Origin: an uncultured Pseudomonadales bacterium
GTDB lineage: Bacteria; Pseudomonadota; Gammaproteobacteria; Pseudomonadales; Pseudohongiellaceae
Length of the DNA stretch: 64,000 nt
Direction of reading: 5' to 3'
NCBI GenBank assembly: GCA_943789485.1
Contig: CALSUH010000010.1
Span: 16,457-80,456 of the forward strand
Shown here: positions 47,791-64,000 of the stretch, piece by piece
Numbering within the stretch: the stretch's first letter is position 1
Layout of the letters: every line of letters starts with the position of its first letter
Program-made: the position numbers and the translations under genes
The notes under the pieces: generated by a model
Database searches by the model: none
What the model was told of the DNA's origin: nothing
What the model saw: only the letters and a program-made list of their open reading frames with translations

Positions 47791-48102
47791 AGAATTCAAA
47801 CAGACTTAAGCCTGTTTGTCCGCTCTAGCTTCTCGCGATGCGTTCGTTGCTTGTGCTTCGCAATTCGTGATTCGAATTTTGATTAAATCAAAATTCTCAC
47901 CCTGCGGGCGGCGTTGCGCCGTCTGCGCTGCTGCCGCCGCTTTTGAACCATATCGATGCCTCTCATCCAGTCCCTGAACGCCATACATAAAAAAGCCCAG
48001 CTTGAGCTGGGCTTTTTTATGTATGGCGTTCAGGGGCGGAATCGAACCACCGACACGCGGATTTTTAGCAGAACGTGTTACCGATCCGTCAATTGAATCA
48101 AA
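47791..48102 (-). other. Repeat element with long hairpin and 3' fragment of a tRNA-Phe gene, copy 1
   Basis: An element of about 310 bases, homologous to 58271-58510. It contains the small palindrome AAACAGACTTAAGCCTGTTT, a perfect 64-base hairpin (47972-48035; arms of 30 bases and a 4-base loop, with A6/T6 runs around GCCCAGC/GCTGGGC which would terminate in both directions), and, on the minus strand, the 3' part of a tRNA-Phe (48024-48067: CGTGTCGGTGGTTCGATTCC T arm, CCA end). The acceptor is CTGAACGCCA instead of CTGGGCACCA. The 5' half of the tRNA is absent; sequence from the anticodon loop onward is kept. Confidence 0.75.
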
Positions 48103-55440: not shown

Positions 55441-56251
55441 GGGGACAGACCACGTTTAATCGGAATTGGTATGTGGTCGCCCTGGTTTTCCCGGTCTTGT
55501 TCTTTTTCCTAGAGCTAATTCAATTTCTCGCTGAAACCTGTCATTCCCCAGAACAAAGTTTCCATTTGTCGCGGAGCGAATCGCGTTTATTTCTCGTTCG
55601 CTCAGCGCACTCTTCAACAACTCTTGATAAGCAAGTAATCGCTCTCCTGAATCAACCGCAAGATTCGAATAAAGTGGGTGTGGACTGATAAGGGAATTAG
55701 GTTGTCCAGCACCATTAAAGCTGAAGCTCGACCATTGATAATCTTGCGGATGACCTACCATTCCCGCTCTCACTGGGTTTAGCTCAATGTATCGATAACA
55801 AGATAGGACATACTGGTCTTCTTGAGTGATGCATGACTTGAAACGACCTTCCCAGAGGGTGCCTGTACGTTGGTACGTTCTGTTGATGAATTGGACAAAA
55901 CGCTGCCCTAGGTTTTTCATCATTAGTGAAGCTGAGTCGCTCTCAGCAGGTGTAACCAGTAGATGCACATGATTAGTCATTAAACAGTAGGCATGAACCT
56001 GACAACCAAACGTTTCAGCCTGCAATTCCAACTGCTCAAGAAAAAACAGATAGTCTTCTTGGTGATAGAAACACGCGCTGCGATTATTTCCACGTTGAAT
56101 GATGTGCCATGGTATGCCGGCTAAGGCGAGGCGGGCTCTTCGGGGCAAATTGGGTTCCTGAATCGAGAATTCAATTATCTAAGAGAAGAGCTATTAAGGT
56201 AGTTGACCCTTCTCAGAACACCAAATTTTCTATAAAACGTGGTCTGTCCCC
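55441..56251 (-). mobile_element. RAYT element with 17-base terminal inverted repeats
   Basis: GGGGACAGACCACGTTT at 55441-55457 recurs as its reverse complement at 56235-56251. The transposase frame ends within the left repeat (stop at 55456-55458). The 811-base unit looks complete: transposase plus two ends. A palindrome of the same GGGGAC type stands alone at 38918-38991. Confidence 0.85.
55456..56148 (-). CDS. REP-associated tyrosine transposase (RAYT, IS200-like Y1 family)
   Basis: 230 residues. Y1_Tnp domain: start MPRRARLALAGIPWHIIQRGNNRSACF, the HUH motif in LMTNHVHLLVTP (His-Val-His) and the catalytic Tyr in VLSCYRYIELNPVRAGMV; W-S-S-F/Y element (YQWSSFSF) follows. These enzymes nick and join single strands at REP palindromes and spread them; they usually occur once per type, flanked by REP sequences, as here. 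No damage seen, so probably functional. Confidence 0.93.
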   Translation of the reverse strand: MPRRARLALAGIPWHIIQRGNNRSACFYHQEDYLFFLEQLELQAETFGCQVHAYCLMTNHVHLLVTPAESDSASLMMKNLGQRFVQFINRTYQRTGTLWEGRFKSCITQEDQYVLSCYRYIELNPVRAGMVGHPQDYQWSSFSFNGAGQPNSLISPHPLYSNLAVDSGERLLAYQELLKSALSEREINAIRSATNGNFVLGNDRFQREIELALGKRTRPGKPGRPHTNSD

Positions 56252-58270: not shown

Positions 58271-58510
58271 AGAATCCAAACAGGCTTAGGCCTGTTTGTC
58301 CCCTGCGGGCTTCGCGCGTTGCGCTCGTTGCAAATTGCTGGCGCAATTAGTCGAACCACATCGATGGCTCTCATCCGTCCCCTGGACGCCATCCACAAAA
58401 AAGCCCCGCTGAAAGCGAGGCTTGTTGTGTATGGTGCCCAGGGGCGGAATCGAACCACCGACACGAGGATTTTCAGTAGACAGCGTGACCGATTCTTTAA
58501 CTAAATCAAT
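58271..58510 (-). other. Repeat element with hairpin and 3' fragment of tRNA-Phe, copy 2
   Basis: Homologous to 47791-48102, shorter. Contains palindrome AAACAGGCTTAGGCCTGTTT, an imperfect long hairpin (58379-58444) with an A6 run, and on the minus strand the 3' part of tRNA-Phe (58477-58432): anticodon loop CTGAAAA with GAA, 3' anticodon stem TCC, T arm and CTGGGCACCA end. Upstream of the loop the sequence does not pair as a 5' anticodon stem, and no D arm or acceptor 5' strand exists, so the tRNA is incomplete. Direct orientation relative to copy 1, 10.4 kb apart. Confidence 0.75.
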
Positions 58511-58580
58511 ATGTTGCAAGCTAGAAAACAGAGTGTGCTAAGAAGTGTGCTAAAAAATTCTTAGATATTAGAGGAATTGC

Positions 58581-58611
58581 TTGTTCCTGTAGTAGGTTCA
58601 GGTACTACTAT
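58581..58611 (+). promoter_or_regulatory. MerR-type promoter candidate for the HMA-thioredoxin gene
   Basis: TTGTTC (58581-58586), a 19-base spacer, TACTAT (58606-58611), with the inverted pair GTAGTA (58589-58594) and TACTAC (58603-58608) inside. An over-long spacer with a GTAGT/ACTAC dyad is the mark of promoters activated by MerR proteins, and it resembles the clearer site at 59759-59789. It lies 40 bases before the gene start. Confidence 0.45.
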
Positions 58612-58650: not shown

Positions 58651-59352
58651 ATGAATAAGCGCACTAATAACATTGTTAAGGCTCTCGCTATTGCTGTAGC
58701 AGGATTGATGCTCTCATTCTCGGTCAAAGCTTTGGCCGTTGAAGCAGAAATGTCGCACGTCACATTGTTCGTCGAAGGTATGATGAAGAGCCGTGGCGGC
58801 GTCACTTGAATGAGCTGACCCGACAGCGTCGTAGTAGCTCTGTCAGAGCTGCCAGGAATAGAAGAAGATAATATTGTAGTTAACTTGGAGAGAGATGCTT
58901 TTACTCTGAGTTACGATCCCGCTCGAGTTACGCTCGAGGATATGTATCTGCAAATTACCGAACTCGGATATTCGCCCGGAATAGAACCTCCTGATGCGCT
59001 GGAATCTGATGAACGGGGAGAAGCAGAAGTTTCGCCCGTTGAAGAGGCATTAGCAACGGCACAACGAGAATCTAAATTGGTGTTTGTAGACTTCTCGGCG
59101 GAGTGGTGTTTGGCTTGCAAAATACTCGAAGAGCAGGTTTTTTCTGATTCAGCTGTACAGGAAGCCCTTAGTAGCTACGTGTTCGTGGAAGTTGATACCG
59201 ACGAGTATCCACAGACGGCTACTACATACCAAGTCGTGGGAATGCCTACGTTGGTGATACTGAGTTCCGAAGGTAATGAGCTATTTCGCTCTGTAGGAAT
59301 AATCGAAGCTGCTGATTTACAGCAAAAACTTGAAGAGCTAGTTAGAAAATAG
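58651..59352 (+). CDS. Exported HMA-thioredoxin fusion with two in-frame TGA codons, probable selenoprotein (UxxU)
   Basis: One continuous frame of 234 codons from ATG 58651 (a second ATG at 58630 is possible) to TAG 59350, except for TGA at 58807-58809 and 58816-58818. Order: signal peptide (IVKALAIAVAGLMLSFSVKALA), HMA domain about 34-115 (HVTLFVEGMM..., then GGVT-TGA-MS-TGA-PDSVVVALSELPGIEEDNIVVNLE), linker, and a thioredoxin-type domain about 130-233 with WCLACK (DsbD-gamma-like) and the cis-Pro segment VVGMPTLVILSS. Aligned with MerP (GMTCSACPITVKKAIS), the TGAs stand exactly at both metal-binding Cys. TGA is a normal stop elsewhere in the window. An 8-bp hairpin (58834-58852) with GU in its loop follows at SECIS distance. 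A start at 58885 is only the part a gene caller would see. A pseudogene is the alternative but less likely. Confidence 0.75.
58834..58852 (+). promoter_or_regulatory. Candidate bacterial SECIS hairpin
   Basis: GTAGCTCT (58834-58841), loop GTC (58842-58844), AGAGCTGC (58845-58852): eight pairs, one of them G-U. The loop starts with GU, the bases that SelB contacts in known bacterial elements. The loop lies 23 bases after the second TGA and 32 bases after the first, inside the usual range. Short stems of this size occur by chance, so folding and comparison are needed. Confidence 0.45.
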
Positions 59353-59739
59353 ACTGTCAATGATCGGGCACTCAGGCACATCGCCCTTGCTGCAGTGCTC
59401 TATCATTTCTTCCAATACTAATTCCATTTGTTGAAGAGTTTGAATCTTTTCTTTGACGTCTGCTGCGTGAGTAGCGGTCAATTCGTGTATCTGTTTGCAA
59501 GTGTAATTTCCATCATCTACCAAGCTCAACAAACTCATAATTTCCTTTAGAGAAAAACCTAAGCCTCGGCAGCGATGGATGAAGTTAAGACGCTTTACAT
59601 CCGCATCATCATAGATGCGTCTACCCGCAGCGCTGCGAGCAGGGACAGGTAAGATGTTCTGCTTTTCGTAGAAGCGAATAGTTTCGATATTAACGCGTGT
59701 CCGTGTAGAGAGTTCACCAATAAGCAAAGACTTTGTCAT
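59338..59739 (-). CDS. MerR-family metal-responsive regulator
   Basis: 133 residues from ATG 59739; the frame is open further upstream only because it runs through the hexamer repeat. HTH_MerR (LLIGELSTRTRVNIETIRFYEKQNILPVPARSAAGRRIYDDADVKRLNFIHRCRGLGFSLKEIMSLL) and a C-terminal coiled coil with metal-site cysteines: C in NYTCKQ (like MerR Cys82) and EHCSKGDVPECPIIDSL (like Cys117/Cys126, spacing shorter by one). It resembles MerR/CadR/PbrR; Hg, Cd or Pb are possible. Convergent with the HMA-thioredoxin gene, the two overlapping by 15 bases, and next to a typical MerR operator. It probably controls both that gene and the czc operon. Confidence 0.9.
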   Translation of the reverse strand: MTKSLLIGELSTRTRVNIETIRFYEKQNILPVPARSAAGRRIYDDADVKRLNFIHRCRGLGFSLKEIMSLLSLVDDGNYTCKQIHELTATHAADVKEKIQTLQQMELVLEEMIEHCSKGDVPECPIIDSLFSN

Positions 59740-59758: not shown

Positions 59759-59789
59759 TTGACCTTGTAGTTACTACAGGATACATAAT
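59759..59789 (+). promoter_or_regulatory. MerR-type promoter/operator for the czc operon
   Basis: TTGACC (59759-59764), spacer of 19 bases, CATAAT (59784-59789). The spacer contains the dyad CCTTGTAGT-T-ACTACAGG (59763-59780), nearly identical in type to CadR/PbrR/MerR operators. It points toward the genes at 60008 and beyond, and away from merR, whose own promoter must overlap it on the other strand. Confidence 0.85.
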
Positions 59790-59797
59790 GTCCGATA

Positions 59798-59855
59798 TAC
59801 AAGTACAAGTACAAGTACAAGTACAAGTACAAGTACAAGTACAAGTACAAGTACA
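59798..59855 (+). repeat. Hexanucleotide microsatellite (TACAAG), 9.7 copies
   Basis: TACAAG is repeated nine times without an error, followed by TACA. It starts 8 bases after the -10 element of the MerR-type promoter and therefore lies in the 5' leader of the czc transcript. It could encode (Gln-Val) repeats in one frame, but the nearest ATG (59788) overlaps the -10 box and is not transcribed from this promoter. Length is likely to vary between strains. Confidence 0.95.
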
Positions 59856-60412: not shown

Positions 60413-60486
60413 AGACTATCTAAGTAAGTTGGCTCGAACTCTTTTTTGAGTCGTTGCCTATACCGGCTATTTGCAGGGGAAAACTA

Positions 60487-61740
60487 ATGAACATGAATTG
60501 CTTAGTGATTGTGGTGTGTGCTGCAGTCATAGGCCCAGCGTCAAATGCTCAGGATATGCTGACTGGCACTATCTCGTTGCGTAATGCGCTGAATGCCACA
60601 ATTGAAGCCCATCCTAGCCTGCGGAGTTTTCCACTTCGCAATGAGGCATTACAGGGTACTAGAGAAATTGCTGACTTAAGACCAGCCTTCACGATAGGAG
60701 CCGAAGTAGAGAACGCTCTCGGCACCGGCGATATTAGAGATTTTACCGGGGCAGAGGCAACCTTGAGGCTGTCCAACGTCGTTGAAATGGGTGGTAAGAG
60801 GGCGGCTCGGGTAGGTGTAGTGAGTCGAAGAATTGAAGCCTTAGATGCAGAGCAACGAGTTGTTGAACTTGATTTACTTGTGGAAGTAGTCCGAAGGTTT
60901 ATTGACGTAGCAACTACCCAAGAGCAAGTGGAGTTGCAGTCGCAGTACACAGCTATAGCTGAACAGACTATCAATATCATCCAACCATTAGTCACTGCTG
61001 GTCAGGCACCACAGTTAGAACTGGATAGAGCGAATTCAGCATTGCTGCGAGCGCGCTTAGCTGAGCAAGCCGCGACTGCCAGACTTGAGAGTTCAAGTAT
61101 TCGTCTCGCTAATATGTGGGCGAATAACTTTCCAAGATTTGACGCGGTGGATGCTGACTTCTTATCCGTTGGACAAGTCGGATCGATTGAATCAATTTTG
61201 TCGGAATTGTCAGAGAATCCTGATATTGAGTACTTCGCTGCTGAAGCCCGCCTTCTAGAAGCGCAACTTCAATTAGCGCAAACACGCCAGCAAGGCGACA
61301 TATCATGGTCGGCGGGAATTCAGCACCTGAAGGAATTTGATGATACCGGATTAGCTTTCGGTGTCACGATACCACTCTCTAATAAAGCTCGCGCATCAGG
61401 CGCCATGCGAACAGCGCGTGCTAATTTGCAGGAAGTAGAAGCGCGTCGACTCACAGCGCTTAATGCAATTGAAGGCGAAATTCGATCGCTGCATCAGTCG
61501 TTGCGACAAGCAATTACAGAAGTTAACAGCCTGCAACAACAAGTTATTCCAGTTCTTCAAAATGTGCAGCAGCAAACGCAGTCAGCGTATGCGGTCGGCA
61601 ATTACAGTTATGTCGAGCTAATAAGTGCGCAGCAAGAGTTTTTGGATGCTCAGCTTTCACTCATCTCAAGCGCCAGCAATGCTCACAAAATTCGAGCAGA
61701 AATTGAGCGGCTCAGTGGAATTCCACTGTCAGGACAATAA
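60487..61740 (+). CDS. czcC: CzcC-type outer-membrane efflux protein
   Basis: 417 residues from ATG 60487 (AGGGG site). Signal peptide (CLVIVVCAAVIGPASNAQ). OEP/TolC family: LRNALNATIEAHPSLRSFPL, the central coiled coils with DLLVEVVRRFIDVATTQEQVELQSQYTAIAEQTINIIQPLVTAGQAPQLELDRANSALLRARL, and SQRTLxAYAVGNYSYVELISAQQEFLDAQLSLI near the end. Forms the outer-membrane duct of the tripartite heavy-metal pump. Transcribed with czcB and czcA, controlled by the MerR-type promoter. Confidence 0.9.
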   Translation: MNMNCLVIVVCAAVIGPASNAQDMLTGTISLRNALNATIEAHPSLRSFPLRNEALQGTREIADLRPAFTIGAEVENALGTGDIRDFTGAEATLRLSNVVEMGGKRAARVGVVSRRIEALDAEQRVVELDLLVEVVRRFIDVATTQEQVELQSQYTAIAEQTINIIQPLVTAGQAPQLELDRANSALLRARLAEQAATARLESSSIRLANMWANNFPRFDAVDADFLSVGQVGSIESILSELSENPDIEYFAAEARLLEAQLQLAQTRQQGDISWSAGIQHLKEFDDTGLAFGVTIPLSNKARASGAMRTARANLQEVEARRLTALNAIEGEIRSLHQSLRQAITEVNSLQQQVIPVLQNVQQQTQSAYAVGNYSYVELISAQQEFLDAQLSLISSASNAHKIRAEIERLSGIPLSGQ

Positions 61741-61753
61741 CGAGGATAAGATC

Positions 61754-64000
<2,247 letters not shown>

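What the first reader, a model, noticed from the sequence alone, without database searches (positions are those of the whole stretch)
58651..59352. Probable double-selenocysteine HMA-thioredoxin protein: TGA codons replace both cysteines of the GMTCxxC metal site
Seen directly: from ATG 58651 one frame runs through signal peptide, HMA domain and thioredoxin domain, with only two interruptions, TGA at 58807 and 58816. Reading them as X gives GVT-X-MS-X-PDSVVVALS, which lines up residue by residue with MerP GMTCSACPITVKKAIS; the X stand at the two metal-ligand cysteines. The protein pattern before and after is intact, with no frameshift or other stop, and hydrophobic positions are kept. TGA is the normal stop of other genes here. 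Downstream is a small hairpin with GU in the loop (58834-58852). Established: Sec in place of redox or metal-binding Cys is the classic selenoprotein signature. Inference: the cell has selA/B/C/D, and the protein binds a soft metal such as Hg through two selenolates, the thioredoxin part recycling it. I do not know whether a UxxU HMA-thioredoxin family has been described. A standard gene caller gives only the C-terminal part (from 58885).
Basis: partly seen in the sequence, partly recalled or inferred. Interest (0 to 1): 0.94.

Follow-up and report, generated by a model that had tools for sequence, protein, structure and literature searches.

The report
Double-selenocysteine metal-binding thioredoxin fusion protein
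A gammaproteobacterium carries a gene in which two in-frame stop codons, kept in every intact relative whose DNA we read, are likely translated as selenocysteine at the metal-gripping spot of a mercury-chaperone-like domain joined to a thioredoxin-like domain, so the protein would likely capture mercury or a similar soft metal through two selenium atoms.

Summary
One frame (58651-59352) runs through an HMA domain and a DsbD-gamma-like thioredoxin domain, interrupted only by TGA at 58807 and 58816, the two metal-ligand positions. All 19 intact genomic homologues have TGA/TGA; all 23 metagenomic proteins that reach the site read Trp at both (TGA read as Trp); no Cys form was listed in three protein searches. 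The genome has selA, selB, selC and selD. A GUC-loop hairpin 32 and 23 nt after the UGAs meets the published bacterial SECIS model in 20 of 20 genes, under strong synonymous constraint. A MerR regulator with three metal-site cysteines lies tail-to-tail in 14 of 20 loci, a MerR-type promoter precedes 19 of 20 genes, and mer or CzcA-type genes are near in 7 of 20. A UxxU HMA family is already known (NF041115), but this gene scores 36 bits against its cut-off of 95 and adds a thioredoxin domain. Verdict: new variant of a known kind, an apparently obligate double-Sec MerP-like/thioredoxin fusion, probably for Hg(II) or another soft metal; selenium incorporation, metal and chemistry are untested.

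The parts
58651..59352 (+). gene of the double-Sec HMA-thioredoxin fusion (233 aa; residues 53 and 56 predicted Sec)
58807..58809 (+). first in-frame TGA, predicted Sec53
   Evidence: TGA in 19 of 19 intact homologues besides the window
58816..58818 (+). second in-frame TGA, predicted Sec56
   Evidence: TGA in 19 of 19 intact homologues besides the window
58834..58852 (+). bacterial-SECIS-like hairpin, loop GUC at 58842-58844, 32 nt after UGA1 and 23 nt after UGA2
   Evidence: the 25-nt stretch folds this way in 20 of 20 genes at -8.5 to -10.9 kcal/mol, codons +11 and +12 invariant; one pair with a compensatory change
58756..58980 (+). HMA (MerP/CopZ-like) domain with UxxU site, about residues 36-110
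   Evidence: Pfam HMA residues 50-107; beta-alpha-beta-beta-alpha order in the model, low confidence at the site
59062..59334 (+). thioredoxin domain, DsbD-gamma-like, active site W152-C153-L-A-C156
   Evidence: Pfam; DsbD C-terminal domain is the best solved relative of this part by sequence and by fold
58581..58611 (+). MerR-type promoter/operator: TTGTTC, 19-bp spacer with CTGTAG..CAG dyad, TACTAT
   Evidence: same layout upstream of 19 of 20 genes, by a pattern written after seeing the sequences
59338..59739 (-). MerR-family regulator, three conserved metal-site Cys; its end overlaps the end of the Sec gene by 15 bp
   Evidence: TIGR02051 126.1 bits, cut-off 150.85 not reached; Cys align with those of 4ua1
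59759..59789 (+). second MerR-type promoter (TTGACC, 19-bp spacer with TGTAGT-T-ACTACA, CATAAT) in front of the efflux genes
   Evidence: sequence printed, read by eye
60454..61740 (+). outer-membrane efflux protein, IhpA/CzcC-like
   Evidence: NF045679 132.4 bits, below its cut-off
61742..62689 (+). efflux adaptor, IhpB/CzcB-like
   Evidence: NF045680 208.1 bits, below its cut-off
62701..64000 (+). CusA/CzcA family RND pump, cut by the window end
   Evidence: TIGR00914 619.5 bits over the first 425 of 1051 positions, cut-off 701.45 not reached by this piece
58401..58560 (.). tRNA-Phe-3'-half-like repeat (possible integration site) just upstream of the gene
   Evidence: 20 further matches in the own genome, some of them neighbouring pieces; tRNA identity by eye

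Best explanation
The gene at 58651-59352 keeps two in-frame TGA codons in all 20 intact copies read and is predicted to make a double-selenocysteine protein, likely periplasmic, whose HMA domain with a UxxU site would bind Hg(II) or another soft metal through two selenolates while its DsbD-gamma-like thioredoxin domain likely keeps that pair reduced. Shown: the frame, the conserved TGAs, the Sec machinery, the SECIS-like hairpin with constrained codons, the two domains, the MerR regulator with three metal-site cysteines, MerR-type promoter layouts before the Sec gene and before the efflux genes, and mer or RND metal-efflux neighbours at 7 of 20 loci. Inferred: that both UGAs are read through in the cell, probably from one SECIS serving two UGAs 9 nt apart; that the protein is exported; that the MerR protein switches the gene on when metal enters; that the metal is Hg(II); that C153/C156 of the thioredoxin domain reduce the U53-U56 diselenide or displace the metal, with electrons from DsbD or a similar membrane donor; and that the captured metal goes to MerT/MerA or to RND efflux, or stays sequestered.
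For: Both TGAs in 19 of 19 intact genomic homologues and in a more divergent copy. Of 133 proteins held after three searches, 24 reach the site: the query and 23 others, all 23 with W at both positions, the sign of TGA read with table 4, none with Cys. selA 569.8, selB 382.8, selD 284.4, tRNA-Sec 66.9 bits in the own genome, all over cut-off (of 14 control genomes 1, 2, 2 and 5 are over those cut-offs); 13 of 15 homologue genomes have selB and 13 of 15 tRNA-Sec over cut-off. The hairpin meets the SECIS model of PMC13188914 (loop 3 nt starting GU, 8-bp stem, spacing 32 and 23 nt, MFE -7.5 or lower) in 20 of 20; Leu CTG at +11 and Ser TCA at +12 in 20 of 20, where codon usage predicts pairwise identity of 0.17 and 0.18; synonymous-shuffle P 0.007 to 0.053 per gene; one pair goes from C-G to U-A in two sequences together with an Ala-to-Val change. 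Upstream of the TGAs pN/pS is 0.10. MerR tail-to-tail in 14 of 20 loci and 2.7 kb off in one more, three Cys in all 15; promoter layout in 19 of 20; merT-merP-merA in L009, merC- and merT/P/A-like genes in L027, merC-like in L022 and L025, CzcA-type genes in the window, L012, L023, L025 and L027.
Against: No Cys homologue was found, so the usual Cys/Sec pairing test could not be made. Among 15 homologue genomes G376 lacks selB, G377 tRNA-Sec and G383 both over cut-off, and G414 has the gene without selB; all may be gaps in incomplete or misbinned MAGs. tRNA-Sec also exceeds its cut-off in 5 of 14 control genomes, so it is weak evidence alone. Thirteen of 20 loci show no mer or RND neighbour in the DNA held, which is short or one-sided for some. 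The MerR protein misses every NCBIfam cut-off and its last two Cys are 8 apart, one fewer than in 4ua1, so Hg versus Cd/Pb/Cu is open. The best solved relatives of the whole profile are copper-ATPase HMA chains. The model is weak at the site (pLDDT under 50 at residues 45-54). The hairpin is part of the minimum-energy fold of the 66-nt stretch in 9 of 20 genes only. Covariation is modest: as many or more both-side pairs in 120 of 500 shuffles, and a one-base slide has 7 cells with both-side changes against 2. A generic promoter score put the MerR-type layout among its best two in 5 of 20 genes (7 with a one-base shift).
Confidence: 0.62

Rival explanations
1. It is a double-Sec protein, but a redox enzyme rather than a metal carrier: the HMA-fold UxxU pair cycles between diselenol and diselenide to reduce a periplasmic oxidant or substrate, with the thioredoxin domain as its reductant.
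For: [quoted passage not shown] similar view in PMC13188914 section 7). The fused domain is a DsbD-gamma-like thioredoxin. Thirteen of 20 loci lack a mer or RND neighbour in the DNA held.
Against: The UxxU pair sits at the metal-ligand positions of an HMA fold, the adjoining regulator has the three-Cys metal site of MerR proteins, and a promoter layout of MerR type precedes the gene.
Confidence: 0.22
2. Sub-case that overlaps the best explanation: a double-Sec carrier for a soft metal other than mercury, such as Cu(I), Ag(I), Cd(II) or Pb(II), serving the neighbouring RND efflux pump.
For: In the window the nearest system is an IhpAB/CzcA-type RND efflux operon; CadR-PbrR (115.5 bits) and CueR (111.0 bits) models score close to MerR (126.1 bits) on the regulator, all below cut-off; CopZ models score higher than MerP on the HMA part; copper-ATPase chains head the solved relatives.
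Against: mer-type genes (merT, merP, merA, merC) occur at 4 of 20 loci, and of the neighbours given to NCBIfam none reached the cut-off of a copper- or silver-specific model (only some 20 proteins were given); the first Cys of the three-Cys site is present in all 15 regulators.
Confidence: 0.25
3. The gene is broken, or the UGAs are real stops: a short N-terminal peptide and a separately started thioredoxin protein, with the hairpin a regulator of re-initiation.
For: Gene callers start the protein after the second TGA in most records; three genomes with the gene (G376, G383, G414) lack selB over cut-off; one further copy, L040, is indeed broken.
Against: Both TGAs, never TAA, TAG or a sense codon, in the 19 intact copies read; no frameshift in these; the HMA domain would be cut in the middle; full Sec machinery in the own genome; low pN/pS on both sides (0.10 upstream, 0.20 at codons 4-16).
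Confidence: 0.04
4. TGA codes for tryptophan in these organisms, as the metagenome gene calls with W at both sites would suggest.
For: 23 of 23 metagenomic predictions that reach the site carry W at both positions.
Against: They lie on contigs of about 0.7 to 5.6 kb, where a table-4 call is a likely gene-calling artefact; the window uses TGG 136 times and TGA as a stop in 3 of 36 ORFs; Trp at both metal-ligand positions would not bind metal; tRNA-Sec is present.
Confidence: 0.01

Closest known systems
NCBIfam NF041115 UxxU_metal_bind, 'metal-binding (seleno)protein' (in PMC13188914 Table 1: metal-binding protein / putative mercuric reductase, UxxU, 2 Sec, traced there to the Olavius algarvensis symbiont paper, which is not held)
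   Same: HMA fold with Sec at both metal-ligand positions (UxxU)
   Different: 74-position single-domain model; this gene scores 36.3 bits against a cut-off of 95, has a longer loop before the site, and carries a thioredoxin domain; no Cys form was found here
'Mercuric transport protein MerP' selenoprotein of the Global Ocean Sampling survey (PMC2398784 Table 2, 2 sequences, no Cys homologue counted)
   Same: Sec in a MerP-type protein, no Cys homologue, marine
   Different: cannot tell: no motif is given in the table and the sequences lie in a supplement not open here; they could even belong to this family
NCBIfam NF045683 MerT_CopZ_Se, MerT/CopZ fusion-like heavy metal transport selenoprotein
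   Same: Sec in a protein of MerT plus MerP/CopZ type (by the model's name)
   Different: fused to a MerT membrane part, not to thioredoxin; matched here, below cut-off, only by neighbouring or second-locus merT and merP, not among the 25 matches of this protein
MerP (TIGR02052), periplasmic mercury-binding protein
   Same: HMA domain, mer-type regulator and sometimes mer genes beside it
   Different: Cys-x-x-Cys, single domain; this gene scores 21.8 bits against a cut-off of 92.55
DsbD C-terminal (gamma) domain (PDB 1vrs_D, 2fwf; NF001419)
   Same: thioredoxin domain with WCxxC, closest solved relatives of that part by sequence and fold
   Different: no membrane domain, no alpha domain; HMA in front instead
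Prx-like 2 and FmdB-like UxxU selenoproteins (PMC2398784, PMC13188914)
   Same: two Sec in a UxxU motif
   Different: peroxiredoxin-like or FmdB-like, not HMA

Membership tests
bacterial selenoprotein gene | in-frame UGA kept in homologues | tested here: met
   19 of 19 intact homologues have both TGAs
[quoted passage not shown]
   20 of 20 genes, for both UGAs, on the local 25-nt fold; in the wider 66-nt fold the hairpin is part of the minimum in 9 of 20
bacterial selenoprotein gene | selA, selB, selC, selD in the genome | tested here: met
   all over cut-off in the own genome
bacterial selenoprotein gene | Cys homologues with Cys at the UGA positions | tested here: inconclusive
   no Cys form of this fusion among the hits listed (one search listed 120 of 168 hits); other HMA proteins have Cys there, e.g. 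MerP of L009
bacterial selenoprotein gene | selenium found in the protein | not testable with these tools
   needs 75Se labelling or mass spectrometry
NF041115 UxxU_metal_bind | score over the curated cut-off (95 bits) | tested here: not met
   36.3 bits; matched at E 0.001 or better by 18 of 18 members of A1, best E 3.5e-10
NF041115 UxxU_metal_bind | Sec at both metal-ligand positions of an HMA fold | tested here: met
   at the level of codons: TGA at both
MerP (TIGR02052) | score over the curated cut-off (92.55 bits) | tested here: not met
   21.8 bits
Pfam HMA PF00403 | score over the gathering cut-off | tested here: met
   29.5 against 24.8 bits, scored with C in place of U
DsbD (NF001419) | full-length protein with membrane domain, score over cut-off | tested here: not met
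   only model positions 463-572 of 574 match, 71.2 against 330 bits
MerR Hg(II) regulator (TIGR02051), for the neighbour | score over the curated cut-off | tested here: not met
   126.1 against 150.85 bits
MerR Hg(II) regulator, for the neighbour | three metal-binding Cys | tested here: met
   aligned with the Cys of 4ua1, one gap before the third; present in all 15 neighbours listed

The most novel reading that the evidence does not exclude
A self-recycling mercury trap: an obligately double-selenocysteine MerP-like domain grips Hg(II), perhaps also methylmercury, with two selenolates in the periplasm, far more tightly than a Cys pair could, and its own DsbD-gamma-like thioredoxin arm reduces the diselenide and helps hand the metal on; it is switched on by a dedicated MerR protein, read from one SECIS that recodes two UGAs 9 nt apart, and travels between gammaproteobacteria on tRNA-Phe-targeted islands. 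It would be a natural selenium-for-mercury detoxification system in bacteria.
Probability: 0.33. Interest if true: 0.87.

Novelty: new variant of a known kind. Interest (0 to 1): 0.74.

Why it matters
Start-to-stop gene calling sees only a truncated thioredoxin, so the metal site is lost in the database entries found here. If right, it is a metal-trafficking domain that has apparently given up cysteine altogether at its ligand pair, with a fused reductase-like domain that may explain how an easily oxidised diselenol pair is kept working. It makes the long-known selenium-mercury antagonism directly testable as an evolved bacterial function, and it offers a clean case for asking how one SECIS can recode two closely spaced UGAs.

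Tried and rejected
Rfam scan of the region: five matches, all far below their gathering scores. Viral contigs: 32 pattern stretches, no relative. Plasmids: 41 records, none covering 80% of the query; the 15 rows shown match from residue 107 on. Class-wide search with A1 (369 genomes): 209 had a match at E 1e-15 or better; in the rows shown, only the own genome is full-length (366.9 bits), the next best (86.8 bits) and the rest cover residues from 84 on, mostly in frames of DsbD-like length. Phylum-wide (398 genomes): 1 match at E 1e-27 or better, the own genome. TGA as Trp and pseudogene readings were rejected (see rivals).

Literature. The Olavius paper (PMC1976440) and Haft and Tolstoy 2025 (PMC12013261) are not held and were not read; what is said of the former comes from the table and reference list of PMC13188914. 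Seen: PMC13188914, abstract, sections 5 and 7 (parts 1-2 of 3, with the whole of Table 1) and passages; PMC2398784, passages and section 6 parts 1-2 of 3 with Table 2; PMC9312934 and PMC12013277, passages only. That an HMA-thioredoxin UxxU family is not in print rests on these, on the paper searches (open-licence papers only) and on NCBIfam release 20. The two GOS MerP selenoproteins were not seen and could be members.

Rows dropped. Of 39 loci (L009-L027) are counted as full homologues, L040 is a frameshifted copy that still has both TGAs, and 19 (L028-L039, L041-L047) match only residues from 105 on. Of 133 proteins held, 109 show no EGMMKS motif; the start words printed for 90 of these lie after the site, the other 19 were not looked at one by one, and a few (P0099) have another N-terminus. 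One search scored 7998 candidates and listed 120 of 168 hits. The 15 genomes hold all 19 loci (L011, L019, L023, L025 share MAGs with L009, L018, L015, L020). L086, L087, L088 and L090 share their tested stretch with L023, L016, L014 and L015 and were not counted again, so three of the four same-genus relatives with the gene are MAGs already counted. L019 was left out of A1, A2 and the pN/pS count, L025 out of A1; N-terminal limits of rows in A1 are approximate. L018's weak merA match (30%) was not counted as mer.

Full report
Observation. The frame 58651-59352 has 233 codons and two interruptions, both TGA, at 58807 and 58816. With Cys in their place Pfam recognises HMA and Thioredoxin over the cut-offs. 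Gene calling by start and stop alone gives only 58885-59352. TGA is a rare but real stop in the window: 3 of 36 ORFs of at least 200 aa. The host is a gammaproteobacterium by kinship: MAGs so titled (L014, L015/L023) are genomes of its genus.

Conservation of the TGAs. A scan of one genome per species gave 39 loci; 19 are relatives over most of the protein (L009-L027), and all 19 have TGA at both codons with no frameshift or other stop in the gene. L040 has both TGAs but a one-base shift before them and is broken. A more divergent copy in G414 reads TGA-Leu-Asp-TGA. In the 5.8-billion protein set, 23 entries reach across the site and all 23 read W-x-x-W, as expected if gene callers used table 4; none has Cys. 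The HMA-only search (residues 30-112) scored 44 candidates and gave 40 hits: 22 of those W entries and 18 that lack the site. So within the reach of these searches the family appears obligately UxxU.

Machinery. The own genome (84% complete) has selA, selB, selD and tRNA-Sec over their cut-offs; of 14 control genomes 1, 2, 2 and 5 are over the same cut-offs, so tRNA-Sec is the least telling. Of 15 homologue genomes, 13 have selB and 13 tRNA-Sec over cut-off, 12 both; G376 lacks selB, G377 tRNA-Sec, G383 both. Among 58 relatives (own genome counted), 5 of 37 in the same genus have the gene and 30 of 37 have selB, against 0 of 21 and 4 of 21 elsewhere in the order; of the 5, only G414 (73% complete) lacks selB. 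The gene is thus a patchy accessory of a largely Sec-using genus.

SECIS. The hairpin 58834-58852 has an 8-bp stem and the loop GUC. Its loop begins 32 nt after UGA1 and 23 nt after UGA2; both lie in the 16-37 nt range of the published model, whose other constraints are met by the local 25-nt fold in 20 of 20 genes (model: PMC13188914 section 5; data). In the fold of the 66 nt from UGA1 on, the hairpin is part of the minimum in 9 of 20. Synonymous identity at codons +10, +11 and +12 is 1.00 where codon usage predicts 0.25, 0.17 and 0.18, and Ser +2 is AGC in 20 of 20; the observed fold is more stable than the mean of synonymous shuffles in every gene, P 0.007 to 0.053. Over 16 distinct of 19 sequences 100% of cells pair; sliding the partner gives at most 58.3%. 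Three of six pairs never vary, two vary on one side, one changes on both sides (C-G to U-A) in two sequences, together with an Ala-to-Val change. Against this, 120 of 500 shuffles reach that number of both-side pairs, all 500 reach the number of pair types, and a one-base slide has more both-side cells (7 against 2); the covariation score and the cells paired are reached by 3 of 500. The synonymous constraint carries more weight. Upstream of the TGAs (codons -22 to -1) pN/pS is 0.10, so the N-terminal part is selected as protein.

Protein. The HMA part has about seven residues more than canonical HMA before the site. Over the whole profile the best solved chains are copper ATPases, through their HMA domains; for the thioredoxin part they are the DsbD C-terminal domain by sequence (4ip1, 2fwe) and fold (1vrs_D, 2fwf), with WC-LA-C. 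The predicted model (mean pLDDT 72.9, pTM 0.51) gives the two domains but is unreliable at the site and linker, so no geometry is claimed. An N-terminal hydrophobic stretch suggests export; no signal-peptide program was run.

Setting. In 14 of 20 loci the next gene, tail-to-tail, is a MerR-family regulator; in L025 it lies about 2.7 kb off; L014, L016, L018 and L019 show none in the DNA held and L023 ends 195 bp after the gene. All 15 regulators have three Cys, which for the window protein align with those of 4ua1; the model TIGR02051 MerR scores best but below cut-off. Upstream of 19 of 20 genes (not L018) lies TTGNNN, a 19-bp spacer of the kind CTGTAGTAGGTACAGGNNN, and a -10 box; the pattern was written after seeing the sequences, so no probability is given, but its strict core occurs once in the whole window, at 58581. 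A generic score had this layout among its best two in only 5 of 20 genes. By eye the same layout stands between the regulator and the efflux operon in the window, before merT in L009 and before the merC-like gene in L027. L009 continues merT-merP-merA (merA over its cut-off, merT and merP below), L027 has merC-, merT-, merP- and merA-like genes, L022 and L025 a merC-like gene, and CzcA-type genes occur in the window, L012, L023, L025 and L027: 7 of 20 loci with a metal gene; the other 13 show none in the DNA held.

Same organism, second case. A search with NF041115 in the own genome found a MerP-like gene with a single TGA at the first ligand position (T-U-V-G-C) directly before a merT-like gene. 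It scores below all cut-offs, and that search did not list the window gene itself, so it is not exhaustive; but it suggests that this organism uses Sec in mercury-transport-type domains more than once.

What is known. A UxxU HMA family exists as NF041115 and stands in the 2026 catalogue as a two-Sec metal-binding protein; a MerT-type and a P-type ATPase selenoprotein are catalogued, a MerT/CopZ one is modelled, and the GOS survey lists two MerP selenoproteins whose sequences I could not see. No entry of the catalogue's Table 1 (119 families by its text) is named as an HMA-thioredoxin fusion. I file the gene as a new variant: it would work like a MerP, but it is a member neither of MerP nor of NF041115 by their cut-offs.

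Confidence. That the gene makes a double-Sec protein: about 0.93. That it handles a soft metal: about 0.75. That the metal is mainly Hg(II) with the thioredoxin part as recycler: about 0.45. These are judgements, not computed.

Noticed in passing
L091:1381-1710 (own genome, G000 contig C14): Second Sec candidate in the same genome: MerP-like HMA protein with TGA-V-G-C (UxxC) followed by a merT-like gene at L091:1758-2120, both below family cut-offs. The minimum-energy fold after the TGA gave no convincing SECIS.
   Followed up: partly
window 58401-58560 and 47993-48101: A tRNA-Phe-3'-half-like sequence with a terminator-like hairpin and GTGTGCTA repeats; the 160-bp query has 20 further matches in the own genome, 13 of them on contig C6 (some neighbouring pieces). 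They look like attachment sites of tandem integrative islands; similar sequence lies near the homologous genes or their MerR in L011, L025 and L027. The tRNA identity is by eye; ARAGORN finds no intact tRNA in the window.
   Followed up: partly
window 59801-59854: Nine AAGTAC hexamer repeats between the MerR gene and the efflux genes, just after the second MerR-type promoter.
   Followed up: no
L018 and L019; L009 and L011; L015 and L023; L020 and L025: Four MAGs carry two copies of the Sec gene. In PACB-20200414-m62 (L018, L019) they are nearly identical but have different surroundings, and L018 lacks the MerR-type promoter; in the other three the copies are more divergent.
   Followed up: no
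window 55456-56148: ORF with the look of a REP-associated or IS200-type transposase (by eye).
   Followed up: no
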